The notes under the pieces were generated by a model. The model saw nothing but the letters and a program-made list of their open reading frames with translations. It searched no databases and was not told the DNA's origin. From positions 992,001 through 1,056,000 of the forward strand of contig JARGXX010000105.1 of NCBI GenBank assembly GCA_030374765.1: a stretch of DNA of 64,000 nucleotides, in the 5' to 3' direction. The position numbers were made by a program, and so were the translations under genes. Shown here one piece after another: positions 943 through 21,560 of this stretch. The stretch's first letter is position 1. The number at the start of each line of letters is the position of its first letter. The DNA comes from Agarophyton chilense (Eukaryota; Rhodophyta; Florideophyceae; Gracilariales; Gracilariaceae).

Positions 943-1019
943 CACATCTCCACACTCGCCACCCCCACCACTTCTTCAATTCCAAGGACACCGCACTCCA
1001 AACACCTTTCGCAATCAAC

Positions 1020-1844: not shown

Positions 1845-1867
1845 TACTTCATTCATATACCCCTTCC

Positions 1868-1873
1868 AATAAA
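1868..1873 (+). terminator. Possible polyadenylation signal AATAAA
   Basis: AATAAA lies 24 bp downstream of the reductase-like stop codon. Support is by position and motif only. Confidence 0.35.
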
Positions 1874-2258: not shown

Positions 2259-2603
2259 ATGCAGCGCTACGAAGCACGTCTTTCCCTACCCCCTGGTTCT
2301 TCTGTCCAATGCTCAGCAGCTGTGGATATTCTTCCACAACGAACGGTTATCACCATCGACGAGGTCCTTCAAATCAAACTTCCAACCACCCAGAATGTGG
2401 TCGAAGTCAGAGGGTTCCAGAATCATATCACCAACGAGCTCATGGACGAGATTCGTGACATTTGGACGACCACCAGGAGGCTCCCCACTCGCAACTCCCT
2501 ACAGCAGCAAGATACTCTGAAACAACTGTTCAAAGAGCGGTATCATATCGTTACCTATGTGCAGCGTACAAGGAAGACTAGCAAACCGGAACGCCTTTAC
2601 TAA
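2259..2603 (+). CDS. Small hypothetical protein
   Basis: This ORF has 114 codons if it starts at the internal ATG at 2259; a longer start at 2187 is possible. The composition is mixed and protein-like, with a hydrophobic/charged middle around DILPQRTVITIDEVLQIKLP and a basic C-terminus. No family is recognised. The same frame stays open after the TAA (2601-2603) to about 3095, so this may be the first part of a longer broken gene, or of one with an intron. Function unknown. Confidence 0.35.
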   Translation: MQRYEARLSLPPGSSVQCSAAVDILPQRTVITIDEVLQIKLPTTQNVVEVRGFQNHITNELMDEIRDIWTTTRRLPTRNSLQQQDTLKQLFKERYHIVTYVQRTRKTSKPERLY

Positions 2604-2748
2604 GGTGTTCAGTTAGCAAACACTCTTCACATCGACCTTAACGTTCACAATCACACTAACTACACTCTTCGGAGTTATAGACCCAGCTCTGCAATATACG
2701 CTTCCATTCAGATTCAACTCTCTCCTTCGGTTCATTCTCATAACGCTA

Positions 2749-3444
2749 TTGAGATGTTCTATCCAAAGCCTGCTACACATTCTCATAATCGAAGGAGGCG
2801 TACAATGTATAAACGCGTTATACGGGTCTCTACAAACTACGCCGTTCAATCCAAACCAGCGATATACCTGGAAGAAACGAGCCTTTCTGGAATTCGGGGC
2901 TCTACTCCTTACTCTACTCATCCCCCTCAACGCCATACTTTTCCTCGTTCACCGCTTCATTCCAGTCAGCGGTACCCTTTCATCAGACGTGAAGACAAAT
3001 TGTATCGCCTCCTCCACAGGAGGGGCCGCAGTTGGCGCTTTGGCATATCTTCTCCAGCTTGTTTCTATATCCTTCTTTCCAGAGTCCTATCTTAACACAA
3101 AGTTCACAATGACCCCGGAACCACGGAGAACCTCTTTTATGAACCTCGTGCTTGGTGCCCTCTCCCACTCTTTTCAACATGCTTTATTCATATCAAGTCC
3201 GGCTGTAACCTTCCGACTACTCGGTATGAGGCTGTCGGCATGCACTTTCGCTGCACTCTCTCCAACCACCTTCTCCACCTCTCGCATTGAGGAACCTGGT
3301 GTTCCTATAATGCTTGGTAACACAGTGGATGTCGTAATCTTGATATCTTCGACAGTTGTCATTCACTATGAGAAAGTGAAAGCAAGTACTGCTCTCACGC
3401 GTTTCAATCCAGTTGTTCAGGTGTTTCTACTGAAAGACGACTGA
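2749..3444 (+). CDS. Doubtful membrane-protein-like ORF without ATG
   Basis: An open frame of about 231 codons ending at 3444, open back to 2617. Four hydrophobic stretches of membrane-segment length occur (around residues 50-72, 90-112, 130-152 and 190-206). The frame has no ATG before residue ~120 and starts at TTG, which is unlikely for a eukaryotic gene. Another plus-strand frame over 2604-3095 also looks partly protein-like. It may be a fragment, an exon, or the hydrophobic shadow of another frame. Function unknown. Confidence 0.2.
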   Translation: MRCSIQSLLHILIIEGGVQCINALYGSLQTTPFNPNQRYTWKKRAFLEFGALLLTLLIPLNAILFLVHRFIPVSGTLSSDVKTNCIASSTGGAAVGALAYLLQLVSISFFPESYLNTKFTMTPEPRRTSFMNLVLGALSHSFQHALFISSPAVTFRLLGMRLSACTFAALSPTTFSTSRIEEPGVPIMLGNTVDVVILISSTVVIHYEKVKASTALTRFNPVVQVFLLKDD

Positions 3445-3496
3445 TCACTATTACAAGAAAAGGAGACTACTCCACATATTACCTCAAATTATACTC

Positions 3497-3502
3497 TTTA
3501 TT
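3497..3502 (-). terminator. AATAAA just after the oxygenase stop codon
   Basis: On the minus strand AATAAA starts 2 nt after the TGA (3505-3507) of the oxygenase reading frame. It is consistent with a polyadenylation signal for that gene. Confidence 0.35.
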
Positions 3503-3504
3503 GT

Positions 3505-4887
3505 TCAATAGGTAACAGATACTATGTAGTCGTCGTCGTCATCCATTATCATACCGCCGTCTTCATAGTCTCCATCTGTGTTAGACGAGTTGAGACCCAT
3601 CCCAGGTTCATCATCCTCTTCTTCATATCCCTCTTCCCCACTTTCAACAACTTCCATTTTATAATCTTCATCCAACTCCTCATCCTCATCTACCTGGACG
3701 TCTTCATCATCATCCTTGTTGGAATCATCCTCTTCGAACTTAGGCCGAAATGCTGGTTGCCTATGCACTGCGTCCGGTAGCTTGTACCCATCCGGTACCA
3801 AGTACATGTGATACCTCATGCAAACTTCCTTAACCAATGCATCCTCGTATCCAGCTCCAGCATGAAACACATCTCCTCTTCCAATAAAAATGGAGTACGG
3901 CGGAATCCTGAACTTTTTCACTACCATCGTCCGAGACAGCCGCTTCAAGCTCCTGTCGTCGGGCACGTACATGTTATGTGACCTCTCACAAACCCAAAGC
4001 ATAAACGAACTCGCTCCCGACGCCATCATGAAGAACCCTGGAACCTCTCCGACGATCTTCTCGGCATCGGTCAGTCCTCGAAAGTCCGTATGTAACACCT
4101 GCCTTGGACAGCCCTCCGCCGTACACAGCACTCGCCCCCCTGTTTCAGGGGCATACATCCTCTTCTTCGCCGACCGGTTGTTGCACAACCGAAGAGCGGC
4201 CGCAATCTGTCCAAACCTCGCATCCAACAATGTCCTTTTCCTCACCATTAAAACGTTGTTCTCGTCCCCCTCCACAGAATCCACAATCCCCACCTTCGTC
4301 GTAATGTACCGCCCAACTCCCTTCATTCTATCTCCAGCGTCTCTCTCCTCACCAGCGTTGATTATAGGGTCCCATTTCTTTCTATTCCCTTCAATCGTCA
4401 AGTCCGGCTGGTTCAAGAAATCCGTCTGGAAGAACTCTAGCAAAGTCCCAGTCACATCCCCATCGAAGTTTACCCCCCTCTTCTTCGCCTCATCCGCCAT
4501 CCTCTCGTCCGTGGCAAACTCTTCCAGCACACAAAATCCTTTCTCCATCAGCTCACTTCTCTTAGTCGCGAAGTACTCGCGGGCCAAGTCATCCCTCTCC
4601 ATTGCTGCCATCCATATCGCCTGCTCTTCATTCACAGGGTGGTTCTTCGTCGGTAGAATCACCCCAAGAACTAGTTCTTTCGTGGAACCCAGTTCCTTGT
4701 GCCTGTTATGAGCAGCACGCCAATAAACCGCATGGTGCACACTTTTCAAGTCTTCTACCCTCAAGCACTCCGCCCTGTGCTTGTTCCGTAGGTAAATCAT
4801 CTGCATCCAGAGGTGCTGATGCTTCACTCCATTTTCACCCGCCGGCCACTCGCTCGGAAGTGCATTCACCAAGTACACCCACGACAT
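3505..4887 (-). pseudogene. 2-oxoglutarate/Fe(II) oxygenase domain, C-terminal part of a broken ParB-oxygenase gene
   Basis: The 460-codon open stretch carries the marks of a non-haem iron 2-oxoglutarate oxygenase. An N-terminal GFCVLEEF strand (117-124) resembles the phytanoyl-dioxygenase start. The metal triad HxD...H appears as H266-T-D268 (VLHTDF) and H342 (DVFHAG). R358 (MRYHMY), 16 residues later, suits the residue that binds the 2-oxoglutarate carboxylate. The C-terminal ~80 residues are a very acidic tail. The frame continues upstream of the Met at 4887, through one TAG (4939-4941), to the solo LTR at 4981-5667. Removing that LTR and one TSD copy links it in frame to the linker at 5661-6233, so this is the C-terminal module of one large gene. 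Substrate unknown; context with a DNA methyltransferase suggests nucleic acid (inference). Confidence 0.65.
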
Positions 4888-4980
4888 ACCCGACCCCCCC
4901 GCATACGGTCCCGCCCTCTTCAGCCCCTTCGGAACACCCTACGGATTATTGTGTTCGAAGCCACGCATTTGCACACCTTC

Positions 4981-5667
4981 TCTTGGCTGTTGACCCTGTG
5001 CTGTCACTGAAAACCAAAAGTGCAGGGGAGCATGGGTTGTTTTGGAGTGTGTCTCTGGAAAAGCGCATATGCGTGTCAGTCGGATCTCAACGTGAACTCG
5101 GGCTGTGATTGGCTACTGCAAATGTGCACATACAATGTGGTGTGTACAAGTGGTATGGCACTATTGGGTTTGTCTGGAGTACACGTGTGTACGTGGTCTA
5201 CTTGTACTACAGTGCACGCTGTTCAACATGTCCAGCTGGTGTACTATGAACACATCTCACAAGGTGTAACGAATGTACTTGGAGAAGAGACGTGACATGT
5301 GTATTACAGGAGACTTGGTGTACTGTGCTGGAACGTGAATGTGTATGGAGGCGGATTGCAAGTAGTGTGAGCTGGCATATTGAATTTGTGCACACGTCAG
5401 TGTAATTATGGGCTGTGCACTGTATATTGCCTTGTTGTGCGCTGCAATGAACATTGACTAGGGTTAATGTCATGCTTGAATATGATTGGTAGTATTGAGT
5501 GTCCCTGCTTTGTAGTCTAGGGTTTACTTTGGGTTGGATTCTAGACAGCTGACGTTTTGAAGTAGTATATAAGTGAAAGTTTGAGCGCCTCCAAGTAAAT
5601 CCAAGCCAGAGCTGGCGAACTTTCCATTCATCCCTCAACCTTTCCTTCAGCATTTCCCTTTCAATCA
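4981..5667 (+). repeat. Solo LTR of Copia family B, inserted in a gene
   Basis: This 687-bp LTR is flanked by a perfect 5-bp target duplication CCTTC (4976-4980 and 5668-5672). It is homologous to the LTR of the Copia element at 18556-19266 (opposite orientation) and to a solo copy at 27587-28274. The usual TGTTGG start is mutated to TCTTGG. A TATATAAG (5566-5573) near the 3' end is the likely LTR promoter. No internal element sequence is present, so it arose by LTR-LTR recombination. It splits the minus-strand ParB-oxygenase gene. Confidence 0.9.
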
Positions 5668-6233
5668 CCTTCCTCCTCTTCGTCCCCTACAAATGCACCC
5701 TGCCCCCCGTCATCATCCAGTTCATCCTCACTCGATGAGAAAACATTGAGTACATGTTCCTTCAAGAAGCGCTTCAGCTCTTTCCTGCTCATCTTCTTGA
5801 ACACATCCACCACGTCAGCCGGTATTTGAGCCGCAGATGTGCCCACCGTCTTTCTCCTCTTCCTCTTCCGCTTTAAAGGCTGTTCATACTCGCGTTCATC
5901 ATCACTAATGACCACAGCCTTTCACTTCCCCTTTCTCTGTCTAGGTTCCATCACCCTCTCACCCGCAGCATCCAGCCCGCGCTCAGTACCTTTTCTAGTT
6001 CGTGTGATGCGTCTAGGAACCACGGTTTCCTGGTGGGGTACAGACTCCCCAGCACTAGACAAAGGAACATTCACAGAAGGTGGCACCTCCACCACATCCT
6101 TCTCCGCACTTGGGGACGCCAGACTCACTTTCAGACCGCCTTCAATCCGCCTTTGTGCGATTTTCATCCTCTTCGACACCAACCGCGGCCACAACCGCTT
6201 CGGACCACTGAGCTCCATCTTCGCCGCTTGCAT
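5661..6233 (-). pseudogene. Charged linker segment of the broken ParB-oxygenase gene
   Basis: Two minus-strand open stretches in the same frame (6233-5925 and 5915-5673) are separated by one TGA (5922-5924). They encode a Lys/Arg-, Ser/Pro- and acidic-rich linker with a short ordered stretch (FKKMSRKELKRFLKEHVL). The upstream end overlaps the ParB part in a different frame, so a frameshift lies near 6300, and a TAA at 6240-6242 interrupts this frame just upstream. The downstream end runs into the solo LTR at 5667. With the LTR removed the frame continues into the oxygenase part. Confidence 0.6.
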
Positions 6234-7905
6234 GCAAAGTTACTCCCTTAAAGACACCTCGTTCTTTCCCATCACAAATGTGCTGTCTAGAACCTTGCCC
6301 GCCGGCAGACCCTTCTCCTTTTACCGCCCTTTCGCATAGTTGGAACATTCCTATGGCGCATTGGAAGAACTGCTTTCGCGTCTCCTGGAAACGTCCCATA
6401 TTCCTCGTAGAACCCATCCTCACCCTCACATGTAGCTGCAAACAACGGATTGCGAAACGGAATATATCGTCTTCGAGTCCTAACAACAAGTCACTCGACA
6501 CATGCGCAAGCCTTAGCACTGGACCCTCCTTGCATACGTTCTCAAAGAACTCCAGGAGACCTTCGCTCCTGACGAATTTCAACCCAAGAGTCGCATAGCG
6601 ATTCAAGTGGCGCAAGCAGTAGATTCTTATAGCTTCGCTCGTCTTCAGCGCCCCAGCTATCCGTGTCGGAGTAAGGTCAGCCAACTTGGTTCTCTTATCG
6701 TCAATCAAGTTGCAAATGAAGGACACTGTCGAATGAACCTTGTCGGCGAAACTCATCTTCAACAAATTTGAACTCATTTCATTGAGTACATTACCAAGAC
6801 CGAGCACTTTGTTCAGCGATAAAGGCTTCCAGTCTTTTCGTCTCCAAAGAACGACATCAAGAGACCGCACAATTCCCAACCACTTTCTCCCTTCAGAGGG
6901 ATCATTCTTCAGATCTCGCAGAACCAAGACGCGGTGATGACCGTCATTGAGTATGACAGGCACCACTACCCTCCCATTGTGAACAATTTCACTGAAATCT
7001 AATTCCATTCCTCCGACGATGGCAACAGCAATCGACCCTGCCGACGCAAGCCAGCCAAACCTTTTGCACTTTGCCATCGTCGCCGCCTTGTGTTCCGCAT
7101 TCACACTTCTGACAGTCTTCTCGGGGATTTGTATATCATCTATGTCCACAATCAAGCGGCACTGGTCATAATCTGAAGCAGAGATCTTCTTTTCCACGAG
7201 AGTCCTATCCACTTCCTGCGAAGGAACTGCATTGCCGTCATCGAACAACTCCAACTCGGGACCGGTGTGGGAATCCCCGCGTACATTCACCGCTGACCCC
7301 ACCTCCACAACATCTTCATCAGAATCATCCACTATCGTCACCCTCTTTTTCGGCTTGACGGGTTGCTTCATGGCCGGCGGCACTGTTGTTGGCTGTGCCC
7401 TCTTCCCCCTCAAAGGCGTAGCAGACTCCTTCGAGGGGGTCGCGCTTTTGGGAGTCTCCGGCCGAGGAGGCCCTGGAGTCAGCACAGAGGAGACGCGTGT
7501 CATCATCGAGGTATCCCATGCGTATATACCTGCCGACACCATATCCTTCAGCAACTCCGGCGGCTCCTCTGCTCCCTTTAAGGAGTACGGATACTTGGAG
7601 TTGATCCACTCCTTAATTTCAGTCCTCCAGATGGCCACCAAGTCCTCTCCCGGCTTCGCAGACTCGCGCAACGAATGGCCATGCATCGCTCTGCAAAGCG
7701 CTTTCCCGGCCGCTCCACTGCACCCAACACCTCTCAACTCCGCAGTGCCAACCATAGTACCCTTCTTCTTCCCTGTCCCATCCGCCAGGAACAACGCCAC
7801 CCTATCCCCACCAGCCAGATTGTTTGCCAATGTAGTTTTTCGCGGAGTGGCGCGTGGAGTACCCCGCGGAGTACCCCTCGCTTTCGCTTTGCCTCGAGTC
7901 ATCAT
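6142..7905 (-). pseudogene. ParB-like domain protein, N-terminal part of the broken ParB-oxygenase gene
   Basis: An open frame of 587 codons from ATG 7905. Residues 1-45 are basic (RGTPRGTPR repeats); 140-205 are a Pro/Ser/Lys linker. Residues ~248-345 resemble the ParB/sulfiredoxin fold: the strand VDIDDIQIPE, a helix with VRSVNAEH, and the signature DGHHR at 321-325 (PVILNDGHHRVLVLRDL), comparable to the GxRR/DGHHR box of ParB-like proteins. Residues 350-520 are a helical region of unknown family. In bacteria and phages ParB-fold proteins bind or cut DNA, and many are linked to DNA methyltransferases. The last ~40 codons are probably out of the original frame (frameshift near 6300). The divergent methyltransferase-SET gene lay about 0.7 kb upstream before the Copia insertion. 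ParB assignment is from motif reading only. Confidence 0.6.
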
Positions 7906-8020
7906 TTGAATCGGATCGTAGTCGGTCGAGGTTGCAAATGGTCGCAGTGCTCACAGCCTTTTATGGTATACAGACTAAGACGTATTAGATCGAGCTCCTT
8001 TGGTGGCGACTATCCGGAAC

Positions 8021-8693
8021 TCACAACGTGAGCGCAGGTTAGGTAAAGGAAAAGGAAGAAGAGGGGGAAAAGACGAGAAGAAGAGAAAAATAAAAGAAGA
8101 GAAACAAAGGAAGGTAGTCAGCCTTGACAATTTACTTCGATCGTTGGCGACCGTCATTGAAAACTATATCTACCTCGCACGCAGTTCCGCCGCCGGTGCT
8201 GACCGTCGGCGGGTCACCCACGTCTCACACCTTGCCACTGTGCGACGAGGAGTTGCGCGCCAAAACAATTTCAAACATGAAGCATATCAAATAAAAACTC
8301 AAAAAATCATCCAAAGTGGTGCGCCAGTGCCAACCACCCCGCGCAGCCCAGATTCGGCTGTTACGGCCAAACCCCGTATCCAGCCCACATTCGCACATTC
8401 TCTCCAACTGCATAGCCCGTGCTCATTCAGCGCTCTCGTCCAATCAAATCGCTCCACTTGGGCCGAAGCCCCAACACGCCCCATTAGAACCAGACCACTT
8501 GTCCATACCACGTTGCATGAGGGCATTTGCAGTAGCCAATCAGATGGCCGTTTCACGTTGAGATTGAGATGAGGCGCATATGCGTTTTTCCGCGGAGGGT
8601 GCCCAAAAGTGCCCATGCTTAAATCCACTTTTTGTTTTCCACTATTTCCAACACTCCAAAGGGCTTGGGGGCACAGTCGACCAAACCTCAACA
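8021..8693 (-). repeat. 3' LTR of Copia A
   Basis: 673 bp; on the minus strand it begins TGTTGAGG and ends CGTTGTGA. It contains CCAAT boxes and a CGCATATGCG palindrome shared with family-B LTRs. By eye it is identical to 13903-14575. Open frames inside it are chance. Confidence 0.95.
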
Positions 8694-9851
8694 CTCCTCC
8701 TCGACTGGTCGGCCAAGTCCAACACGGTCCGCGTTATTGTTGTGAAGACCTGGGCCAAGTGGTTTAGTTAAGAAGTCCGCATCATTGTCTTCACTTGGAA
8801 CGTACGTCACATTGATGTGACAATCCTTGACTAGTTCCCGAACGAAGTGCAACTTAACGTCAATGTGCTTAGCGCGACCCGACGGACAGCGTTCACCAGT
8901 TGCCCAGTCAATGGCGCACTGGTTGTCCGAACGAATGGGCACAGCACCTTGCACTTTCCATCCAATCTCCTTAAGCACACGCTTCAACCAAATGACCTCC
9001 TGACACGCAAGCGTCAAAGCATAATACTCGGCCTCGCCGGTAGACAACGCCACCGAAGCCTGTTTTCTTGCGCCCCACATACATGTCGCTTTGCCAAGCT
9101 TCACTAAGAAACCAGACATTGACTTGCGATCACGCGTGTCCGCAGCGTAGTCAGAGTCAACGTACGCCTCCAGTTTCACCATGCCAGAGTGATAGTGCAC
9201 ACCATGTTCAGTTGTACCGCGAAGGTAACGAAGAACCCGCTTTGCTGCCTTGTGACAGTAGGCCGTGGGCGATTTCTGAAAACGAGCCAAGATTAGGACG
9301 GGTGCTAATATATCCAACCGAGTTCTCAGTGCCAAATACAAAAGCGATCCAATGATCTGCTGGTACAGCTGAGTATCCTGGATGGATTTGTCTTTCTCAG
9401 ATGTCCACCCGGTAAAAAAAGATTCTACCATAGGGGTGCATGCCGGCTTGGATCGCTGAAACCCGAAACGGCGCAACACGCTTTCCGTGTACAGTGACTG
9501 ACCAAGATACAGCGACACAGGTCGACCATCTGAATCTAAAGTCCATTTGAATTCAACGCCGAGGTACAAGTTCACTTCGTCCGCCACACGCAGCTCGTAA
9601 AACGACTTAAGCTCCTCCAAAATCGCATCACGTTCCATGGCAGAAGTTGTGAATATTAGCAAGTCATCCACATAAACTAGCACGAACGCATCCTCATTGC
9701 TCTCGTTTTGGCGGCGAAACACGCAAGGTGCACTCGGTAACTCTTCAAAACATATGCTTTTCATATCCTCGCATAGTTTGTTGTGCCATGCCAAGTGCGC
9801 TTGCTTCAGTCCATAGATAGCCTTGAGCAATTTGAAGCATCGTGAAGTCAC
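8688..9851 (-). CDS. pol: Copia A pol, reverse transcriptase and RNase H part
   Basis: Same frame as the upstream polyprotein, downstream of one TAA (9870-9872). It holds the rest of the reverse transcriptase, with LLKAIYGLKQA and the catalytic YVDDLLIF box. RNase H follows (AYVDSDYAAD, STGEAEYYAL, KHIDVKLHF). The family polyprotein would normally have Gln at the interrupted codon (the motif is usually MxQPxGF), so a CAA to TAA change is likely. The true ORF has no own start; it is the C-terminal part of one polyprotein of about 1433 residues. Its stop codon lies inside the 3' LTR (8688-8690). Confidence 0.92.
   Translation of the reverse strand: MTSRCFKLLKAIYGLKQAHLAWHNKLCEDMKSICFEELPSAPCVFRRQNESNEDAFVLVYVDDLLIFTTSAMERDAILEELKSFYELRVADEVNLYLGVEFKWTLDSDGRPVSLYLGQSLYTESVLRRFGFQRSKPACTPMVESFFTGWTSEKDKSIQDTQLYQQIIGSLLYLALRTRLDILAPVLILARFQKSPTAYCHKAAKRVLRYLRGTTEHGVHYHSGMVKLEAYVDSDYAADTRDRKSMSGFLVKLGKATCMWGARKQASVALSTGEAEYYALTLACQEVIWLKRVLKEIGWKVQGAVPIRSDNQCAIDWATGERCPSGRAKHIDVKLHFVRELVKDCHINVTYVPSEDNDADFLTKPLGPGLHNNNADRVGLGRPVEEEC
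8694..8702 (-). promoter_or_regulatory. Polypurine tract of Copia A
   Basis: On the minus strand GAGGAGGAG directly precedes the 3' LTR. This is the place and composition expected for the plus-strand DNA primer. It also encodes the last Glu residues of pol. Confidence 0.7.
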
Positions 9852-9869
9852 GCCAGGTATACCTCGAGG

Positions 9870-12800
9870 TTACATGATCCACACATCTTCCTCAAGTTCG
9901 CCATTGAGAAACGCAGTCTTCACATCCACCTGTACCACATACATGCGCAAGCATAACGTCAGATACAAGAATATGCGAACCAAAGAGAACGAAACAACTG
10001 GTGCATAAGTCTCCATGTAGTCCTGACCATATGTTTGGTGGTTTCCACCGGCTACAACACGAGCCTTAAAACGTTCAACTGACCCATCAGCATTGCGCTT
10101 TACCTTCAGTATGACGTGAGTTGGTAGTGGTTGTGAAGCAGGAGAGTCATCAGGTTTCCAAGTTTGCTTCGACTCCAATGATGAAAACTCTTCATCGACG
10201 GCTGCTTGCCACATGGTACGCTCCTCCGCACTGGCGGACATTGCCTCCTTGAGTGAGGGCTCATCACTAGTAGTGACTTTGACTTGCGATGTACAGTGAG
10301 CAGACCCTGCCATGAACCACCTCAGAGGTTGACGGCGCGTGCGCCGCGGGTAGCGTGGTTCCGTATCAGCGTTGGCAGATGTATCAAGGTCATCAGCAGC
10401 ACTTTCGTCATCACTTTCGGAATCCTGTGCATCGTCTTCATTGCTGCCGGAGTCTGACTCCGACTGCCTGAGTGTTGGAATCAGGTGCGAGGATCCGTCA
10501 TGAACCACCTCCTCCTCAACATTATCCACGGAGAAGGTATCCGATTCGTCATCAATGCTATCACATAATCCCATATCAGAGCTATAGTCAGCATCTGACG
10601 CACTTTCATCATCCATGTAGTTGGCAAGAGATGATGCGCCAGGGAACTTGGATTCATCAAAAGTAACATGTCGTGACTCAATAATACGCGGAGTACCATC
10701 ATTATCAACGACGAGTACCTTGTACACACCATGCTCAAGAGTCTCCAAGTACACTCCCTCAAGTGCACGAGACTCGAACTTGGGTCCACGCGGAGTCCTT
10801 AGCACGAATGCAGTGCATCCAAACACACGCACGTGCTTTAACAAAGGTTTATTTCCAGTTACCAGAAAGTAGGGACTGTTGTTAACAGTAGAATGTTGCA
10901 CTCGATTACGCACAAAGATAACATGTTTCAGCGCATATGGCCACAAACATTCTGGTAGATCGGCTTGGATCAGCAACGATCGAGCAGCTTCCACCATGGT
11001 ACGATTGATGCGCTCAGCTATAGCGTTGTGTTCGGGGGTGTATGGAGCAGAGAAAGAAGTGAGGCCATGTTCTGCTGCCAAGTTCTCTTGCAGGGCAATA
11101 TATTCTTCTGCACCGTCCGAGTGCAAACTTTTGATATGCACTCCTCCAAGCTGCTTAAACTTTGCCGCAATACCCACAAACACATCACTAAGAGCACTGC
11201 GATGGATCACCAGACCTAGGAACACATACCGTGAGTGATCATCGAGGAATGTACATGCATATTGAAACTTTTCCGGAAAAGACTTTTCCAGAGGACCTAC
11301 AATATCCGAGTGCACAATGTCACCAACCGCGGATGCATGTTCAAAGTGACCTGGGAACGGAAGCTTATGAGCCTTGCCAAGTCGACATGCTCGGCATACC
11401 TCCTCCATGTCACACAAGTGCGGCACTCCATCTGCGTACTTGTGTACATGTTGCAGATCACGTTGGTTGATGTGAGCCAGTCGTCGGTGCCACAGTTGAG
11501 TCTCCGTAGACTTTGTCGAAAGCGCAAGTTCCACGCCAGCATGCCCTAAAGGTTGAGGCAGTGTGTACATGCGAGATACCTTGTCACGATCACCAATGCC
11601 CACCTCAAAACCATTTGACTCTAGCGTCAAACGTACACTATGACGACCGAAGAGCGACTCAATACCTTTGTCGGCCAAACACCCGGTTGAAACCAAGTTG
11701 TATCCCAGAGCGGGGGTCAGTAGGGCATCACTCAGACCTATGTTCGCATTGTCCAAAGGAATGATCACCTCTCCGCGTTGTTTAGATACAACAGATGTGT
11801 TATCGGCAAGCATCACTGTCCTTTCGTCGCAAGGTTCAAGTGAACCGGGCACGAACGCACAAACAGAATGGAAGCAATGTACTGTCGCACCGCTGTCTGC
11901 GTAGGTACTCAGGTCATTCGGCGGAACTATAGTGGTCCTTTCCACAGTTGCACCAGCAATTTCGATTTTTCCAGACTTTCCAGAAGACTTGCTCGAGGCG
12001 CTTCTACCACTACTGCCACCCATTCGCTTGGGTTGTGGCGACAGTTTATCGAGGATACTCTGCGGCAAGTGGTTGTCCGGGTTGTCCGGATTCATAAAGC
12101 AACGATCTTGTGTGTGTCCATCGCGATCACAGAAGTCGCAATGATGTCCATTGCTCGATCCAGAACGATCAAATGATGACGATCTCAAGGCGGCAGCAAG
12201 TGCACGAGCAGTAGACTCAATGTCGGAGTGACCATCAGACTCCTCATCTTCGTTGTTTGCACTACTGCGGGTACGATTAGTCGATTCAGAATGTCGACCA
12301 GATTTTTTCCTGCCCTTCTTCTTGCGACGTGAACTACGTCCAGACGGCCTTGCAGACACCTGTTTCGCGTTGTATTCATCTATGAGGGTCGTGGCCACGT
12401 AGTCCCATGTAAGCTCAGCGATATCCTTGGTTCGAAGAGCTGCAGCAGTAGACTCCAGTGTGCAATTGGGATCAATAGAAGCAAGTAACATGGGAGCTTT
12501 GTGCGACTCGGGTACTGCCGCATCCTTTCCCATGCGCTCTAACTGAGCAAATAACGCCGTGTACTGGTCCACATAGCCTGACATATTCTGACCATTGTAT
12601 CCCATACGGAATAGTTGAGTCTGCACAGCAATTCTGGATACAGTACGATTGGACGCATACCGTGCATCAAGTAATGCGAGCATGCGCGCCGGGTCGTCGT
12701 CGACATCCATGACCACACGAAGTGGCGCATCACCCAAGGCGCATATTATGATTCCACATGCCTTCTCGCGCTTGGCGACAACTCGAGCGCTATCAATAGC

Positions 12801-12989
12801 GGTATCCGATGTTGCTTCAGTAGTTGCTGAATACGCAGAATCGGATTCCACAACGTTCCACACACCTTTAACACGGCATGCAGCACGAAGGCGATGGCGC
12901 CATAGGGCATAATCATCACCACGCCTTCCATGAAAACGAGGGATTTTCATCCCGGTAGTACTTTCGGATTCCATTTCCGTGTCCGACAT
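9870..12989 (-). CDS. gag-pol: Copia A gag-pol polyprotein (gag, protease, integrase, start of RT)
   Basis: 1039 codons from ATG 12989. Gag is followed by a CCHC zinc knuckle around residue 283 (CDFCDRDGH..C) and the aspartic protease signature ADSGATVH near 363. Integrase carries the HHCC zinc module (WHRRLAH..., CRACRLGKAH, ~500-560) and a catalytic core with SDIVGP and DDHSRY. RT starts with VDVKTAFLNGEL just before the TAA at 9870. The stop is one base from Gln. All other motifs look intact, so a sister copy could supply function. Confidence 0.93.
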   Translation of the reverse strand: MSDTEMESESTTGMKIPRFHGRRGDDYALWRHRLRAACRVKGVWNVVESDSAYSATTEATSDTAIDSARVVAKREKACGIIICALGDAPLRVVMDVDDDPARMLALLDARYASNRTVSRIAVQTQLFRMGYNGQNMSGYVDQYTALFAQLERMGKDAAVPESHKAPMLLASIDPNCTLESTAAALRTKDIAELTWDYVATTLIDEYNAKQVSARPSGRSSRRKKKGRKKSGRHSESTNRTRSSANNEDEESDGHSDIESTARALAAALRSSSFDRSGSSNGHHCDFCDRDGHTQDRCFMNPDNPDNHLPQSILDKLSPQPKRMGGSSGRSASSKSSGKSGKIEIAGATVERTTIVPPNDLSTYADSGATVHCFHSVCAFVPGSLEPCDERTVMLADNTSVVSKQRGEVIIPLDNANIGLSDALLTPALGYNLVSTGCLADKGIESLFGRHSVRLTLESNGFEVGIGDRDKVSRMYTLPQPLGHAGVELALSTKSTETQLWHRRLAHINQRDLQHVHKYADGVPHLCDMEEVCRACRLGKAHKLPFPGHFEHASAVGDIVHSDIVGPLEKSFPEKFQYACTFLDDHSRYVFLGLVIHRSALSDVFVGIAAKFKQLGGVHIKSLHSDGAEEYIALQENLAAEHGLTSFSAPYTPEHNAIAERINRTMVEAARSLLIQADLPECLWPYALKHVIFVRNRVQHSTVNNSPYFLVTGNKPLLKHVRVFGCTAFVLRTPRGPKFESRALEGVYLETLEHGVYKVLVVDNDGTPRIIESRHVTFDESKFPGASSLANYMDDESASDADYSSDMGLCDSIDDESDTFSVDNVEEEVVHDGSSHLIPTLRQSESDSGSNEDDAQDSESDDESAADDLDTSANADTEPRYPRRTRRQPLRWFMAGSAHCTSQVKVTTSDEPSLKEAMSASAEERTMWQAAVDEEFSSLESKQTWKPDDSPASQPLPTHVILKVKRNADGSVERFKARVVAGGNHQTYGQDYMETYAPVVSFSLVRIFLYLTLCLRMYVVQVDVKTAFLNGELEEDVWIM

Positions 12990-13902
12990 ATTTCAGTCTG
13001 TTATCCACGAAGCAGATAGAACGGAACCAAACGAAATTAATTAGTAGAGGGAAGCAGAGTGAGGGACTCAATGCCTTGGGAAGTTTAAGAAAAGGGCCAC
13101 GAGCAGTGATGAATTCGTGGCCGAGCTTGCCCGAACGGAGTATCCCAACTCAAACGTTCGACAGCGAGGACGACAGCGGAGACTTTTGACGTAGCCTGCA
13201 ACGCTCACCGAGACGCGTCTCGTACGCGATCACAAGCGGAGCTCGGGTGCTCCCACGCTTGGAGTATACTCACGGGCAGTGGCAGAAGGCGTACCCGGAA
13301 CAGACAAACTTCTCGACTTCGGGTTGAAACTTCTTGATTGAACCTACCGAGACTTGCTCGAGGTAGGCGGGCGCACTGGCGGGAGAAACTACCTCCGCTA
13401 CCCTAAAGGATGATCCCCTGGACCCTGGTTACTCTCTCCAGGTGAGGTACGCTTTGATTACCTACCGAACTCTGCGCACTTCAGAGTCCGGCGCTTTTAG
13501 TCCCTACGAGGCGTCCCAAGGAGGGGTGTCGTCAAGATACACTTCCCCCAGTTGACCCAAGCTAGCCTCTTGCGGGAAAGTAGCGCGGTCGTGCGGTGTA
13601 GTACGGTTGCTCCTACACTTCCAAGCCCAATTCATCGACCTCCGTACTCTACGGACGGAGAGCAGGATTTGGCAGACTTCCCGGTCTCGTGCCAAGGGGG
13701 TACTAACAAACGCGATATGTTTTCGCCACCAAGGAGGAAGTCCGCAGGGTACACGCCTGTCGCAAAACAAAATAACTTCTTGAATCCAGATGAGCGTTAG
13801 TCGTAGATCGCGCACCTGTCGCAGTAGGGAATCTTCTTGAATCCAAATAAATGTTAGTAGAGCGTGACGTCTGCGAAGAGTCGACGCTCTGGGCCCATAA
13901 CC
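12990..13902 (-). other. Untranslated leader of Copia A
   Basis: About 0.9 kb between the 5' LTR and the gag ATG. I see no ORF with protein-like composition. Repeated CTTGAATCCA-type motifs near 13780-13850 suggest short internal duplications. It probably contains dimerisation and packaging signals, which cannot be located by eye. Confidence 0.6.
13889..13902 (-). promoter_or_regulatory. Primer binding site for initiator tRNA-Met (internal, half-tRNA type)
   Basis: The 14 bases next to the 5' LTR read CTGGGCCCATAACC on the plus strand. This equals the anticodon stem-loop of eukaryotic initiator tRNA-Met (CAU anticodon). The element strand is complementary to it. Priming would therefore use an internal cut tRNA fragment, as in Drosophila copia, rather than the tRNA 3' end. 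Confidence 0.8.
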
Positions 13903-14575
13903 TCACAACGTGAGCGCAGGTTAGGTAAAGGAAAAGGAAGAAGAGGGGGAAAAGACGAGAAGAAGAGAAAAATAAAAGAAGAGAAACAAAGGAAGGTAGT
14001 CAGCCTTGACAATTTACTTCGATCGTTGGCGACCGTCATTGAAAACTATATCTACCTCGCACGCAGTTCCGCCGCCGGTGCTGACCGTCGGCGGGTCACC
14101 CACGTCTCACACCTTGCCACTGTGCGACGAGGAGTTGCGCGCCAAAACAATTTCAAACATGAAGCATATCAAATAAAAACTCAAAAAATCATCCAAAGTG
14201 GTGCGCCAGTGCCAACCACCCCGCGCAGCCCAGATTCGGCTGTTACGGCCAAACCCCGTATCCAGCCCACATTCGCACATTCTCTCCAACTGCATAGCCC
14301 GTGCTCATTCAGCGCTCTCGTCCAATCAAATCGCTCCACTTGGGCCGAAGCCCCAACACGCCCCATTAGAACCAGACCACTTGTCCATACCACGTTGCAT
14401 GAGGGCATTTGCAGTAGCCAATCAGATGGCCGTTTCACGTTGAGATTGAGATGAGGCGCATATGCGTTTTTCCGCGGAGGGTGCCCAAAAGTGCCCATGC
14501 TTAAATCCACTTTTTGTTTTCCACTATTTCCAACACTCCAAAGGGCTTGGGGGCACAGTCGACCAAACCTCAACA
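13903..14575 (-). repeat. 5' LTR of Copia A
   Basis: 673 bp, read as identical to 8021-8693, followed by the target duplication GGAAC at 14576-14580. Confidence 0.95.
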
Positions 14576-14608
14576 GGAACATTCCCGAGAGCAGTTCGTT
14601 GCAATCAG

Positions 14609-14686
14609 CCTGAACTACGTCCGCTTAGTTTCAACCTGAGCTTCGTCCGCTTAATTTCAACCTGAGCTACGTCCGCTTAGTTTCAA
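14609..14686 (+). repeat. 26-bp tandem repeat, three copies
   Basis: Units start at 14609, 14635 and 14661 with only a few differences; each contains a core CTACGTCCGCTTA. It lies in the original intergenic region between the two divergent modification genes, next to the Copia A insertion site. Confidence 0.85.
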
Positions 14687-14779
14687 ACTCAAGAAACTCC
14701 TTGTCTCTTTCCATCACAAACACGCCTATTGGCTTGGTAGGCGATACAAGAAAATAAAAATAAAAAATAAAAAATATCC

Positions 14780-14982
14780 TGACGGCCAACAGAGGTGCGC
14801 TCCGACTTCATCGGGGGTCCCGATGAAGTCCCCGCGCACCTCTGTCGGCCGACATAATACATATAATTTTGAAATTTTTGGAACGCTCAGGTGTACACGG
14901 TGCACTCTGTCGGCCGACAGAGGTGCGCGGGGACTTCATCGGGACCCCCGATGAAGTCGGAGCGCTCCTCTGACGGCCGACA
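14780..14982. repeat. Nested inverted repeats: two 75-bp palindromic blocks
   Basis: Block 1 (14780-14854) and block 2 (14908-14982) are near-perfect reverse complements of each other, separated by 53 bp. Each block is itself an imperfect palindrome with arms of about 36 bp. The shared cores are CGGCCGACA, AGAGGTGCGC and GACTTCATCGGG. The DNA could form two hairpins or one large cruciform. It lies 185 bp upstream of the methyltransferase ATG. Confidence 0.9.
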
Positions 14983-15068
14983 GAATGCAACCAGGATAGC
15001 TGCGAAGTCGGTCAGCAACAACCGTTCTTCCGTGCGCGCTCCTCAACCGTACTCACAATCTTTCCGTA

Positions 15069-15112
15069 CCCACCCGCACCCACCCGCACCCACCCGCACC
15101 CACCCGCACCCG
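15069..15112 (+). repeat. 10-bp minisatellite CACCCGCACC
   Basis: Four exact copies in a row at 15071-15110, with partial units at both ends. It lies about 55 bp upstream of the methyltransferase ATG, probably in its promoter or 5' UTR. Confidence 0.85.
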
Positions 15113-15167
15113 CTGCTCTCTTTCACTCAGGCTCTCGTGACGACCGCCCGTGGCAGACACCTTCGAA

Positions 15168-16655
15168 ATGGGTAAACTGTTTGGTACGGGGGATGAAGTT
15201 ATCAGGGCGTGTCTGGATTTGCGTGATCGTTACGCATCAACGAGGTGGGAGGAAGATGAGCCGCGAAAAGTGGGGCACACTGCATTCATCGATTTCGCAT
15301 TTGCCAATCGCCACATCCTACCGGAGACCGCGAAGTTTTTTTATACTCTCCTAGGTCCCGACCACACCAATAACACAGAAGATGAGCTCCGAGGGTTAGG
15401 AATGAGGGGCTCGAACTGTCAGAATTATTTCTCGGCGAGGTTGCTGGATATAAGGGATGGGGACCCAGATAGGCGCGTGAGGTACTTTTGGAACGCGTAC
15501 GAGGCGGTGGAGTTCAAGGGCATCCCGAAGAATGTCACTTTGACAGAGTTCTTCAAAGGTCTGGATACAACCCGAAAGAAGGCGAGCAAAAGCCGGGCTC
15601 CATTCGCGACCGACTTCCCGACAATGTTCCAGAGGTTGCTGTTCCTCATTTGTATTCAGTCGGTCTCTATGGAGAAGGGAAGAGTCTCCCGTAAGCGAAG
15701 AAAGCGGGACAGATCCTACGATACGCCATTTTCGAAGGTGGCGATTTATGACAAACCAGTAGCTCAGCGTGTGGGCTTTGGTGTGCAGCTCGTCAATAAC
15801 GCGTGGGACAGCTTCGCCCAGTATTTGGGATTCCCTGGCGTGGTATTCATGGTTTTGCCCTTTATCCATCTACGATATTCTGATATGCAGTTCAAGGCAA
15901 TCGGAAACAGAAGGGATGGGTTCTCTCACAAGGACATGGCCCAACGACTCCTTCCTGGTAGAAACCGTACTTTATTGGAGGAGGATGTCGTCCCATGGGC
16001 GTGGAACCTGCCGGAGTACGTTGAAACTCCACTTCGTATGTTGGCCAAAGAGTTTCTCGCTGACCTGCACAAAGTGGTGGTGAATGAGCAGCTTTACTCT
16101 ATATCAGCTCCGGAAAGATGGGACGTTCTAAAACCGTTTACATACACTTTGCCTAGAGTGTTTGCGGAGAGATTCGACTGCTTCTCGAACTCTCTTATCT
16201 CTACAATCTCGGAATACATATCGCCACTAAAGCTGCGAGGGAGTGTGGAGCTGGAAGTGGTGGCTGCGACAAAGGCGGAACATACTATGGTTATGGAAGA
16301 AGATGAGATAGAAGTTGTACCCCCTGAGAAAGATTCGGAGGCTCCGGCGGTGGAGGGTGGAGAGGGAGTGGAGGGTGGGACCGGGAATGAGGAAGAGAAC
16401 ATGGGTGTTGGTCAGCATTCTTCCACAGCTGGACCAAGGTCGGTCGAATCTGAGTCGGTGGATACTCTGCCGCCTCACGACCTTACCTCTCTGGATGATA
16501 TAATGTCTCTCCAAAAGTGCGAGTCGGAGATGGATAAGCACTGTCGAATGTACAATTGTACTTTCGAGAACCTGGTGGAGATTGACGAGACATTGCGCAG
16601 CAATGGGGTCTCTCCGATAGGGAAAGTGCAGTTGGTTCTCACGGACCCGCCGTAA
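15168..16655 (+). pseudogene. Amino-DNA-methyltransferase-SET fusion, N-terminal part up to a stop in the DPPY motif
   Basis: The frame opens at GTG 15150; the first ATG is 15168, which I take as start. Residues 1-430 are a conserved-looking but unrecognised domain, followed by an acidic Glu/Gly/Ser linker. The last residues are VLTDPP, then TAA (16653-16655) and an Asn codon. This is the catalytic motif IV (DPPY/F/W) of N6-adenine/N4-cytosine methyltransferases with the Tyr codon changed to a stop. The reading frame continues without shift into 16656-18224. No intron is needed. Codon use looks normal, so the nonsense change looks recent. The same frame holds the nucleotide-binding motif later, i.e. 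beta-class order. Confidence 0.8.
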
Positions 16656-18224
16656 AATATACGTGCGAAGAAGAACAGGGAAAACAGCTGGTACGACGTT
16701 CTTAACCGGCAAGACATGGTGAAGACGGCGAAGCTCATCTCTAAACTTCTGCGTCCGGGAGGGCATTTCGTTATATTCTGCGCGATTGAGCAGGTGAACG
16801 AATGGAAAGAAGTGTTGGGTCAAATCGGTGCAAAGGATGAGAATGGACAGAAGAGCAGGTCGTTTGTCGTGGACAAGGTCCAGCTGCACTTCATTCGCTC
16901 TCAAGGCAATCCGATGCGTAATCCCAGACGTAGTTCGTGCTCCCTGTTTCTCAGAACAGAGTACGCCATTCATGGAGTTCGCAGCGGGTTGTCCTACGCC
17001 GAACAACATGGCATGGTGAACTATGAGAACTTCAGCTATGTACCATCGCGATATCCGGGTTACCATAGCGTGATTGACCAAGTGCCTCCCATGTCGAATG
17101 GTGAAACACTTCTATGGAGAAGGATGAATGCCAAAGGAGCAGTTACGTATCAGAAAGTGCGGGCGGAACAGAAGTCACGCGCTTTGCTGAAGGAGCTCAT
17201 CAGCAGGTTTTCTCAGCCGGGAGACATAGTGGTGGACCTCTTCGCCGGAACATTTTCAACGGCCATGGAATGCATGGAACTGGAAAAGCACCGTCAGTTT
17301 CTAGGGTGTGAGCCAGATCCGCAGTTCTTTGCTCATGCGAAGCACGCCGCTACAGTGAAATTTGCGTCATGCATGCGGAACAACGAGACGGACATTCATA
17401 TAACGCAAGATGTTCGGAACGCTGTGACTCGAGTGACATGCTTGTTTCCGGACGTCGTCATAAAGCGTTCGAAGTCCTGGAAAACACCTACCGGATTTCC
17501 CGAGCATCAGATGTTTCTGCCCCATATCGTGGATTTTCTCTCCTCCATGTGGCAGGATAAGAATATACCGGAGATTGGGCGACGGCAGGCGCTGTATGAG
17601 TGGCCGAGAAGTTTTCAAGGAAAGATGTCACTGTTGGATTGGAATGATATTCTGGCAGTGGAGGCGACAGTATGTGGTTGTCGGATTGCAAATGCTGGAG
17701 TTGGTGTGTACACAACACTCCGGGTGATACAAGGTGAGACTGTTTGTTACTTTTACGGGACTTTGGTGTACCATGATCTTTCAAAGCGGAAGGAAGTTCA
17801 TAAAGCATACGGATGGGGGCTATTGAAAGCGAAGGCTGATCGTTTTCGGCAGTATGCGATGGAGATAAGCGTCCGAGGGGAAGTGTTTCACAAGCTACCA
17901 GGAAGAATTAGTGGGGTGTCTCTTATTCCGGTGTGGATTGTCCCAGCTCCATTTTGCTTGGGGGGAACAATTAACGACCCCAAGTATGTGGAAGGGGATA
18001 CGGACAGGGATGCGGTTGACGACGGGTTAATGAGACGCCGAACTGCAAATGTTCGGGTCGTCAGAACTCCGGGGACGGGGCGGACCCCATTTCAGTTGAG
18101 AGACTATAGATTGCTTTCTGTGCAAGCAATTCGAGATATAGAAATAGGAGAGGAGCTGTTCGCGGATTATGGGACAGAGTATATCTGGAGTATGAATAAC
18201 ACGCCAGTCATAGTAATCGTTTAA
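16656..18224 (+). pseudogene. Amino-DNA-methyltransferase-SET fusion, C-terminal part (SAM motif I and SET domain)
   Basis: Same frame as the upstream part, open from 16656; the first Met is at 16716. LLRPGGHFVIF (motif V/VI-like) comes first. AEQKSRALLKELI and DIVVDLFAGT (D690 counted from ATG 15168) give the classic end of beta-class amino-methyltransferases, where motif X/I binds S-adenosylmethionine. Residues ~825-1015 are a SET domain: ANAGVGVYTT (GxG), IND at 935-937 in place of NHS, ANVRVV and the catalytic-Tyr box ELFADYG (Y1001). SET domains methylate protein lysines, mostly histones. The fusion therefore would join DNA and protein methylation. There is no post-SET Cys cluster; the protein ends 17 residues after Y1001. 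Confidence 0.82.
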
Positions 18225-18555
18225 AAGTGCATCGCTTTTGTTACTTTACTTCATTGTAGTGTACCAGATATTGTGGGCTTTTACTATGTTTGTCGCTTCA
18301 TATAACGTCAAATCGTGAAGTAGTACATATGCTAAAGGAAAGTCATGTACACCGAAGGAGAGGACTTTCCCAATATCTGGTGCGTTCGAGCGCATATTTA
18401 AAATATCTGAAAAGTTTGGGGGTTTTCTGAGAACACGAAAAGGGTGGAGGTATATTTTTGGAAGCAGAATGTTTCGAAGCTTCTCTCCCATCCATCGCAT
18501 TGCAACGCGTGGAAGACCATACCACGATCGCATTTCCCTTTCCATCAGGTTATGG
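18225..18555. other. 3' flank of the methyltransferase-SET gene
   Basis: AT-rich, with ATATTTAAAATATC near 18393 and no convincing ORF. It is cut at 18556 by the Copia B LTR. No clear terminal repeat matching the left side (3440-3510) was seen. Confidence 0.4.
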
Positions 18556-19266
18556 TGTTGGATTGGGAAATGCTGAAGGAAAGATTGAAGGAATGAAAAG
18601 GAAGTTCGCCAGCTCTGGCTTGGATTTACTTGGAGGCGCTCAAACTTTCACTTATATACTACTTCAAAACGTCAGGTGTCTAGACTCCAACCCAAAGTAA
18701 ACCCTAGACTACAAAGCAGGGACACTCAATACTACCAATCATATTCAAGCATGACATTAACCCTAGTCAATGTTCATTGCAGCGCACAACAAGGCAATAC
18801 AACAGTGCACAGCCCATAATTACACTGACGTGTGCACAAATTCAATATGCCATCACACATTACTTGCAATCCACCACCATACACATTCACGTTCCAGCAC
18901 AGTACACCAAGTCTCCTGTAATACACATGTCACGTCTCTTCTCCAAGTACATTCGTTACACCTTGTGAGATGTGTTCATAGTACACCAGCTGGACATGTT
19001 GAACAGCGTGCACAGTAGTACAAGTAGACCACGTACACACGTGTACTCCAGACAAACCCAATAGTGCCATACCACTTGTACACACCACATTGCATGTGCA
19101 CATTTGCAGTAGCCAATCACAGCCCGAGTTCACGTTGAGATCCGACTGACACGCATATGCGCTTTTCCAGAGACACCCTCCAAAACAGCCCATGCTCCCC
19201 TGCACTTTTGGTTTTCAGTGACAGCACAGGGTCAACAGCCAACAAGTACAGGGTCAACAGCCAACA
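18556..19266 (-). repeat. 3' LTR of Copia B
   Basis: 711 bp. It begins TGTTGGCTGTTGACCC on the minus strand, and this start is duplicated (22-bp tandem copy, 19223-19266). Otherwise it matches the solo LTRs at 4981-5667 and 27587-28274. Confidence 0.9.
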
Positions 19267-19275
19267 CCCCCCCTC
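19267..19275 (-). promoter_or_regulatory. Polypurine tract of Copia B
   Basis: GAGGGGGGG on the minus strand lies directly before the 3' LTR. It probably primes plus-strand DNA. Confidence 0.7.
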
Positions 19276-19286
19276 AGTCACTGACT

Positions 19287-20258
19287 TCAGAGGTCTAGGT
19301 GTCGGACGCCACTGTCTTCACGGAACCTCTCGTGCTTCACACGGCAAAGTGGTTTGTTGAGCATATCGGCAGTCATGCAATCGGTAGGGCAGTAGAACAA
19401 CACAATCGACTTGTCACGTAGAGCTTCTCGAGTAAAGTGAACACGAATGTCGATATGCTTGGTACGCTTGTTGACAACATTTCGGGCAAGGCCAATGCAC
19501 CTTTGGTTGTCAACATATAAAGGCGTTGGTTCAACAAGCAACTTTACCGAATCGTCCACTTCTACTCCAATGACTATGCCGATGCCATTCCACAAACGCC
19601 TAAGCCAGATGGCCTCTTTGGAACCACTGCACAGACTCACATACTCAGCTTCAGCACTAGACAGTGCAACCACTTCTTGCTGACGTGAACACCATGACAC
19701 AGGACCTCCAGCCATCATGAACAAGTATCCACTGGTAGACTTGCGGTTTGCAACATCGCCTGCCCAGTCAGAGTCCACGTAGCCGTGAAGTGCCAAATCG
19801 GTGTTTAAGCCGTAGGTGAGACCAAATGTACAAGTACCGTTGAGATAGCGAAGCACACGTTTGACTGCCTTCCAGTGAATCTCTCCAGGTTTCTCAACAT
19901 ACTTGGCAAGTTTGGACACCGCGTATGAGATATCTGGACGAGTTCCTACAGACAAGTACATGAGACAGCCAATTGCCTGACGGTACGGCACCTCCCTGAG
20001 TACATCCTGAATCGCAGACAGGTCCATGCCAACTTCCATTGGAGTGTCAACTGGTTTGGACTGGTGCATGCCAAAACGTTCCGAGACCTTTTGTGTGTAC
20101 GCAGACTGAGTCAGATACAACTCTCGCTTAACTCTGTCACGGTGGATCTCGAATCCGAGTACCATGCGAGCTTGATAGAGGTCTTTCATGTGGAACCGAG
20201 ACGACAGCTCTGCCTTTACACGATCCATTGTCTTCATGCTCGGACTTGCAATAAGCAA
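19287..20258 (-). pseudogene. Copia B pol, end of RT and RNase H
   Basis: 323 codons in the same frame as the upstream parts, separated by a TAG at 20310-20312. The RT catalytic box (YVDDLLIA) sits just after that stop. RNase H motifs follow: GYVDSDWAGD, SSAEAEYVSL, KHIDIRVHF. Motifs look intact apart from the upstream nonsense codons. Confidence 0.88.
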
Positions 20259-20309
20259 GTCATCAACGTATAGAGCAATTAGAACAACAAATCCCAGTAT
20301 CTTTCCGCT

Positions 20310-21524: not shown

Positions 21525-21560
21525 GAGTGTGCGGTTGAACCGTTCGGCAAGTCCTTTCTG

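What the first reader, a model, noticed from the sequence alone, without database searches (positions are those of the whole stretch)
3505..18224. Head-to-head ParB/2OG-oxygenase and DNA-methyltransferase/SET genes: a candidate DNA-modification cassette
Removing Copia A and one copy of its GGAAC duplication (6560 bp) puts the ATG at 7905 (minus) and the ATG at 15168 (plus) about 0.7 kb apart, divergent, around a palindrome-rich region. One gene joins a ParB-like fold to an Fe(II)/2-oxoglutarate oxygenase; the other joins a beta-class amino-methyltransferase to SET. ParB-methyltransferase links are known from phages and bacteria, and oxygenases such as AlkB/TET/JBP act on modified bases. A writer plus possible eraser pair with a SET module in a eukaryote is unusual. 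It could be a mobile element or a captured modification system.
Basis: partly seen in the sequence, partly recalled or inferred. Interest (0 to 1): 0.88.

Follow-up and report, generated by a model that had tools for sequence, protein, structure and literature searches.

The report
Red-alga jumping gene with DNA-marking kit
A large jumping gene in a red alga carries a two-gene kit (one predicted DNA-tagging enzyme, one predicted DNA-binding protein with a possible tag-removing part) on either side of a cluster of mirror-image DNA sites, and a distant relative of the same kit is found near chromosome ends.

Summary
The head-to-head pair is real but is cargo. The window holds a decayed, truncated copy (1-18531) of an ~18.8-kb DNA transposon of a red alga with a Plavaka-type transposase (E 1.2e-22), 20-bp inverted ends, and 2-bp target duplications at 8 of 11 paired insertions. 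Of 64 MTase-SET matches in this family, 55 have a divergent ParB/2OG partner and 9 have none within 15 kb. In two other copies both genes are open: a 1228-aa ParB-2OG-like protein and a 1043-aa CcrM-like DNA methyltransferase fused to SET, with 12-14 TGTCGGCCGACA-type cores between them. A second, deeply diverged pair (35-52% identical by region) has the same layout with a different 16-bp palindrome in 773-bp tandem units. It lies near contig ends, in one case beside telomere repeats. ParB and methyltransferase folds are supported by models; the oxygenase rests on motif and spacing only. Best reading: an accessory module by which the transposon marks its own chromatin (inferred). Giant 16-20 kb EnSpm elements with 4-5 ORFs were already reported in the red alga Chondrus, and transposon-borne TET/JBP and SET genes elsewhere. 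My searches listed no report of this combination.

The parts
1..18531 (+). Truncated, LTR-interrupted copy of the ~18.8-kb Plavaka-type transposon (left end ~280 bp outside the window; right third with transposase missing)
1020..1844 (+). 274-aa ORF of the element's left arm, weakly ketopantoate-reductase-like; cargo of unknown role
   Evidence: ApbA_C E 0.038, below cut-off; 274-aa ORF also in the C117 copy
3505..4887 (-). C-terminal half of the ParB-2OG gene: predicted Fe(II)/2OG oxygenase region
   Evidence: HTD codons at 4084-4092, distal H codon starting (minus strand) at 3864; same HxD-76-H-16-R spacing in families A and B; no profile hit
4981..5665 (.). Solo Copia-type LTR inserted into the ParB-2OG gene
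   Evidence: 97-98% complementary to 18589-18799 and 18802-19242; junction with short target duplication against the uninterrupted C10 copy
6142..7905 (-). N-terminal half of the ParB-2OG gene: ParB N-domain plus helical domain; ends early after a frameshift at 6323
   Evidence: AlphaFold model of the C10 protein, Foldseek/VIA hits to ParB; DGHHR at 6931-6945; frameshift
8021..14575 (-). Copia retrotransposon inserted between ParB gene and palindrome array, TSD GGAAC
   Evidence: Pfam gag, integrase, RVT_2; junctions
14756..15002 (.). Shortened palindrome array (4 cores, up to 2 mismatches, at 14780, 14843, 14908, 14971); the C10 and C117 copies have 12 and 14 cores
   Evidence: 35-nt pattern at 138 sites genome-wide, 0 for the reversed control
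15168..16655 (+). N-terminal part of the MTase-SET gene, ending in a stop within the DPPY motif (16653-16655)
   Evidence: open 1043-aa frame in C10 and C117 copies
16716..18224 (+). C-terminal part: amino DNA methyltransferase core and SET domain
   Evidence: PF01555 7.9e-13; PF00856 4.2e-4 for this piece, just under its cut-off
18532..23087 (-). Copia-type retroelement sequence at the truncation point (ends not resolved); the transposon does not resume beyond it in the window

Best explanation
The pair is an accessory module of a giant Plavaka-type cut-and-paste transposon in a red alga. Shown: a TIR/2-bp-TSD element of ~18.8 kb with a Plavaka transposase; a divergent ParB-2OG / MTase-SET pair around a palindrome array; a second, long-diverged pair with the same layout near contig ends. 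Inferred: the ParB part binds the palindromes (possibly as a nucleotide-gated clamp that spreads along the DNA) and so concentrates the oxygenase part on element DNA; MTase-SET writes an amino-methyl mark (most likely N6-methyladenine, by its CcrM-like core) and a lysine methyl mark on nearby chromatin. The two together keep the element's own chromatin in a state that lets it be transcribed and moved (anti-silencing), with the oxygenase removing a host mark or trimming the element's own. The subtelomeric family would use the same module on satellite arrays at chromosome ends.
Against: No activity, binding, expression or methylome data. The oxygenase fold is unconfirmed. Short transposase-bearing derivatives with no listed match to either gene exist (C3:1305453-1310242 and C99:336998-343714), so the module is probably not needed for mobility as such. 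Strict array hits were found in 1 of the 5 derivatives under 11 kb that lie on contigs covered by the hit list (a sixth is not covered). None of the 44 listed transposase matches lies at a family B locus, but only the best candidates were scored; the module may exist without this engine. In family B only 9 of 21 MTase-SET matches had a divergent partner within 25 kb, and on C31 the nearest listed 2OG match, 16 kb away, is convergent, perhaps from a tandem copy.
Confidence: 0.5

Rival explanations
1. The ParB-type protein is mainly a local regulator: it binds the array to control the divergent promoters (KorB-like) or to aid transposition, and the enzyme domains only fine-tune this.
Against: Array-bearing segments without the genes exist: one read in full (L215), and 35 of 100 listed palindrome hits have no gene match within 12 kb. 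Family B units also run on distal to the ParB gene and are tandemly repeated (358 matches, pieces included).
Confidence: 0.2
2. The enzymes act on the host at large: they re-mark host chromatin or rival elements rather than the transposon itself.
For: Phages and plasmids carry multidomain ParB and methylase proteins against host systems (PMC5512222, passages seen).
Against: A ParB-like domain and its adjacent array point to cis targeting; nothing here tested genome-wide effects.
Confidence: 0.13
3. The subtelomeric family B is a host-serving chromosome-end element (Y'-like, recalled) and the transposon merely borrowed or spread its genes.
For: 15 of 21 B MTase-SET matches lie within 60 kb of a known contig end, 14 of those 15 with the MTase gene pointing away from that end; C95 begins with CCCCTAAA(A) repeats and a B pair follows.
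Against: Of 6 contig ends read, only C95's is telomere repeat; four (C10, C106, C96, C103) end inside or beside B sequence, which may be assembly breaks, and C117's is neither. Six B contigs have unknown length. Near-identical copies could be spread by ordinary subtelomeric recombination.
Confidence: 0.1
4. A true partition (segregation) system for an extrachromosomal stage of the element.
For: ParB-fold protein next to palindrome arrays, as in plasmids.
Against: No ParA-like domain among Pfam hits of the six ORFs scanned (small ORFs not scanned).
Confidence: 0.04
5. Passenger genes with no function for the element.
For: Many copies carry stops; module-free derivatives exist.
Against: pN well below pS between families A and B for both genes; conserved motifs and layout.
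Confidence: 0.03

Closest known systems
Plavaka (EnSpm/CACTA-related) DNA transposons, including fungal TET/JBP-carrying ones (Kojima 2025, PMC12730594; abstract, passages and section 3.2 seen)
   Same: Plavaka transposase domain, 2-bp TSD, a transposon-borne (here only predicted) 2OG enzyme; that paper also cites SET methyltransferase genes in HarbingerS and MuDR transposons
   Different: Termini CGTC..GACG match neither PlavakaA (TGT..ACA) nor PlavakaB (CATCA..TGATG); host a red alga; the word ParB does not occur in that paper; no DNA-methyltransferase-SET cargo in what I saw
[quoted passage not shown] seen only as cited in PMC6431247)
   Same: Size, host phylum, superfamily and number of ORFs fit well; probably the same class of element
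Plavaka giant repeats of Amoebidium (PMC11244446, passages and section 7 seen)
   Same: Large intron-poor gene clusters beside a Plavaka transposase, with similarity to red-algal sequences
   Different: Their described cargo is tyrosine recombinases; the word ParB does not occur in that paper
Bacterial and phage ParB-methyltransferase proteins (e.g. Bce_0392, described in PMC5512222; passages seen)
   Same: ParB domain linked to an adenine methylase
   Different: Here ParB sits on the oxygenase-like chain and SET is added to the methyltransferase; eukaryotic transposon
Bdelloid rotifer N4CMT (PMC8885841, search listing only; PDB 8s9m/n/o)
   Same: Bacterial-type amino methyltransferase in a eukaryote
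   Different: First at rank 16 by Foldseek and rank 9 by VIA here, behind CcrM and other adenine methyltransferases

Membership tests
Plavaka-type DNA transposon | Plavaka transposase domain | tested here: met
   PF18759 E 1.2e-22, 81 bits vs cut-off 26.3
Plavaka-type DNA transposon | Terminal inverted repeats and 2-3 bp TSD | tested here: met
   20-bp TIR; 2-bp TSD in 8 of 11 pairs, 3 of 11 without
PlavakaA or PlavakaB sublineage | Termini TGT..ACA or CATCA..TGATG | tested here: not met
   Termini CGTCTGTG..CACTGACG; definitions from PMC12730594
ParB/Srx superfamily | ParB N-domain fold with GxxR-type motif and following helical domain | tested here: met
ParB-parS partition system | Specific binding of adjacent palindromic sites | not testable with these tools
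   Arrays are present; binding unknown
ParB-parS partition system | ParA ATPase partner | tested here: inconclusive
   None among the six ORFs scanned; small ORFs not scanned
TET/JBP or other Fe(II)/2OG oxygenase | HxD...H...R metal and co-substrate motif | tested here: met
   HTD-76-H-16-R in families A and B; motif assignment recalled
TET/JBP or other Fe(II)/2OG oxygenase | Match to a 2OG/TET profile or fold | tested here: inconclusive
   No 2OG match in Pfam, PHROGs or PDB sequences; model of that part unusable (pLDDT 25-40). Not filed as a member
Beta-class amino DNA methyltransferase | Motif IV (DPPY) before motif I (FxGT) in the N6_N4 fold | tested here: met
SET lysine methyltransferase | SET domain above curated cut-off | tested here: met
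   23.4 and 26.1 bits vs 22.4 in A and B; 21.1, just under, for the broken window piece; IND in place of the usual NH motif (recalled)
SET lysine methyltransferase | Histone methylation activity | not testable with these tools
   Sequence only
ParB-methylase (one chain) | ParB and methyltransferase in one polypeptide | tested here: not met
   Two genes here; one chain in P0017, P0024, P0025 by motif

The most novel reading that the evidence does not exclude
A eukaryotic ParB/palindrome loading system: a nucleotide-gated ParB clamp spreads from palindrome arrays and delivers a base-oxidising enzyme, while a partner writes 6mA plus a histone mark. It is used by a giant transposon to hold its own chromatin open and, in a second family, installed on red-algal subtelomeric satellites as a chromosome-end element.
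Probability: 0.22. Interest if true: 0.9.

Novelty: new variant of a known kind. Interest (0 to 1): 0.72.

Why it matters
It puts a candidate 6mA writer, a SET methyltransferase domain, a candidate oxidiser and a ParB-type protein with adjacent palindrome arrays on one eukaryotic transposon. That gives a compact test of how transposons write or erase epigenetic marks in cis. The second family near chromosome ends, with mostly consistent polarity and a different palindrome, makes a ParB-type system at eukaryotic chromosome ends directly testable, by methylome and DNA-binding assays.

Tried and rejected
Fungal host: assumed at first from the Plavaka/TET literature; rejected, because the assembly has a contig (C39) with 14 of the 15 phycobilisome-protein matches found (all 15 over cut-off), and ParB-2OG homologues P0002, P0029 and P0030 are from Gracilaria domingensis. 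The host species itself is not identified.

Viral or prokaryotic origin of the exact architecture: viral contigs held no match to the six short patterns of the single ParB-2OG sequence, a search for close relatives only. The 63 viral and 69 genome-contig loci listed for A1 are matched in and around the methyltransferase core only, and I read none of them further.

Array retention in derivatives as proof of a cis-acting function: dropped. Of 6 derivatives under 11 kb, 5 lie on contigs covered by the listed pattern hits and 1 of these 5 has hits. The pattern allowed no mismatch and only 100 of 138 hits were listed; longer copies on C71, C88 and C2 also showed none, so it misses arrays.

Within-family A substitution counts are not used: several loci are the same genomic copy fetched twice. 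They would not show purifying selection (N/S rate ratios 0.62 to 1.29). Only the A-B comparison is kept.
Full report
Where it lies. The window is G000:C105:992001-1056000 of an unnamed 79.8-Mb assembly in 135 contigs. The assembly contains a contig (C39) with 14 of the 15 phycobilisome-protein matches found (all 15 over cut-off), and the ParB-2OG protein finds hypothetical proteins of Gracilaria domingensis at 29-32% identity, so the host is most likely a red alga.

The two minus-strand ORFs (6142-7905, 3505-4887) and the two plus-strand ORFs (15168-16655, 16716-18224) are as described. Copia A occupies 8021-14575 between GGAAC duplications. Comparison with other genomic copies shows that each pair of ORFs is one broken gene: frameshift at 6323, solo LTR at 4981-5665, stop at 16653-16655 inside DPPY, and a 21-nt deletion at 17691. 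In the C10 and C117 copies the proteins are open over 1228 and 1043 codons.

It is a transposon. Two copies in different places align over about 18.8 kb and then diverge abruptly. The ends are CGTCTGTGTTCTCGGAATGC...GCATTCCGAGAACACTGACG. Flanking 2-bp duplications match in 8 of 11 left/right pairs (tt, ca, at, ta, aa, ag, ta, ta) and do not in 3 of 11; by chance about 0.7 of 11 would match. A 1087-aa minus-strand ORF near the right end is a Plavaka transposase (PF18759, 1.2e-22), with 44 genomic matches listed, a lower bound. The window copy starts about 280 bp inside the left end and stops at 18531, so it has lost the transposase. Other ORFs are a 274-aa ketopantoate-reductase-like ORF (E 0.038, below cut-off) and 350- and 524-aa ORFs without a significant domain.

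Linkage. One search scored 64 MTase-SET matches at 78-100% identity (family A) and 21 at 45% (family B); only the best candidates are scored, so these are lower bounds. In family A, 55 of 64 have a ParB/2OG match upstream in divergent orientation within 15 kb; 9 have none, and none of the 9 has one within 20 kb in another arrangement. Six of the 64 ParB matches entered lack an MTase-SET partner (one further ParB fragment left out). In family B, 9 of 21 have a divergent partner within 25 kb. Of the 12 without, 7 lie under 50 kb from a contig start, some so close that a distal partner would be off the contig; 5 lie at high coordinates on contigs of unknown length. One of these 5 (C31) has a 2OG match 16 kb away in convergent orientation, perhaps part of a tandem copy.

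Palindrome arrays. The 1.25-kb gap between the divergent genes of the C10 copy holds 12 copies of TGTCGGCCGACA or one-mismatch variants; C117 has 14. Nine of the 15 perfect palindromes of 12 bp or more in the C10 element lie there. A 35-nt pattern from the array occurs 138 times in the genome and the reversed control never. In the family B locus read (C106) the layout is the same with unrelated sequence: a 6.4-kb gap with about seven 773-bp tandem units carrying seven copies of the perfect palindrome ATTGCCTGCAGGCAAT and 64-nt inverted repeats. Arrays also occur without the genes (L215; 35 of 100 listed pattern hits), but other short derivatives show no strict hit, so the array is not shown to be essential in cis.

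Chromosome ends. The rows listed for the 773-bp unit fall in 23 contigs (358 matches in all, pieces included). Contig C95 begins with CCCCTAAA(A) repeats (3524 pattern matches in the genome, reversed control 0), followed by units, ParB-2OG pointing outward, more units, and MTase-SET pointing inward. Of 21 B MTase-SET matches, 12 lie under 60 kb from a contig start and 3 (C92, C117, C106) under 60 kb from a known contig end; 14 of these 15 have the MTase gene pointing away from that end (C32 is the exception). The other six lie on contigs of unknown length and all have the orientation expected for a high-coordinate end. Caution: of six contig ends read, one is telomere repeat, four lie in or beside B sequence and may be assembly breaks, and one is neither. 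None of the 44 listed transposase matches lies at a B locus, but a diverged transposase would not have been scored.

Constraint. Between A and B, pN is 0.41 (ParB-2OG) and 0.45 (MTase-SET) against pS 0.76 and 0.81, i.e. saturated: both proteins were kept by selection over a long time. Amino-acid identity by region is 35% (ParB), 45% (MTase-SET) and 51-52% (2OG).

Mechanism. Array-proximal ParB plus DNA- and chromatin-modifying enzymes, kept together in two old families, fit a module that marks its own DNA. Loading of ParB, 6mA writing, lysine methylation and base oxidation are each inferred. The anti-silencing role is by analogy with transposon-borne TET/JBP proposed in fungi (PMC12730594: abstract, passages and section 3.2 seen).

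Known and new. Amoebidium has Plavaka giant repeats with red-algal similarity (PMC11244446, section 7 seen). SET genes in other transposon lineages are cited in PMC12730594. The searches listed no paper whose title or abstract start describes a ParB/2OG or MTase-SET transposon or such a subtelomeric element; they cover open-licence PMC papers only, and only the listed rows were seen.

Noticed in passing
window 53873-59140 (+): 1755-aa single-exon separase-like ORF (Peptidase_C50, E 1e-62); a likely host gene.
   Followed up: no
window 18589-23087 and 30151-31789: Copia-type gag, integrase and reverse-transcriptase ORFs, and separate RVT_1 and RNase H fragments of other retroelements.
   Followed up: partly
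window 23264-23835: A third copy of the Copia A LTR-type repeat (97-99% like 8020-8319 and 8480-8591); not resolved to an element.
   Followed up: no
G000:C115:635300-639500, C103:119800-124000, C128:457200-461500 (L212-L214): Further decayed ParB-2OG relatives at 39-43% identity to the window's 2OG region, so more than two lineages of this gene lived in this genome.
   Followed up: partly
G000:C1:44-783 and C1:5284 onward: Telomere-type CCCCTAAA(A) repeats both near the contig start and again about 5 kb inside.
   Followed up: no
P0017 (1134 aa), P0024-P0026: Proteins from unnamed contigs with a DGAHR motif of ParB type N-terminal to the methyltransferase (P0017 with SET as well) in one chain.
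   Followed up: partly
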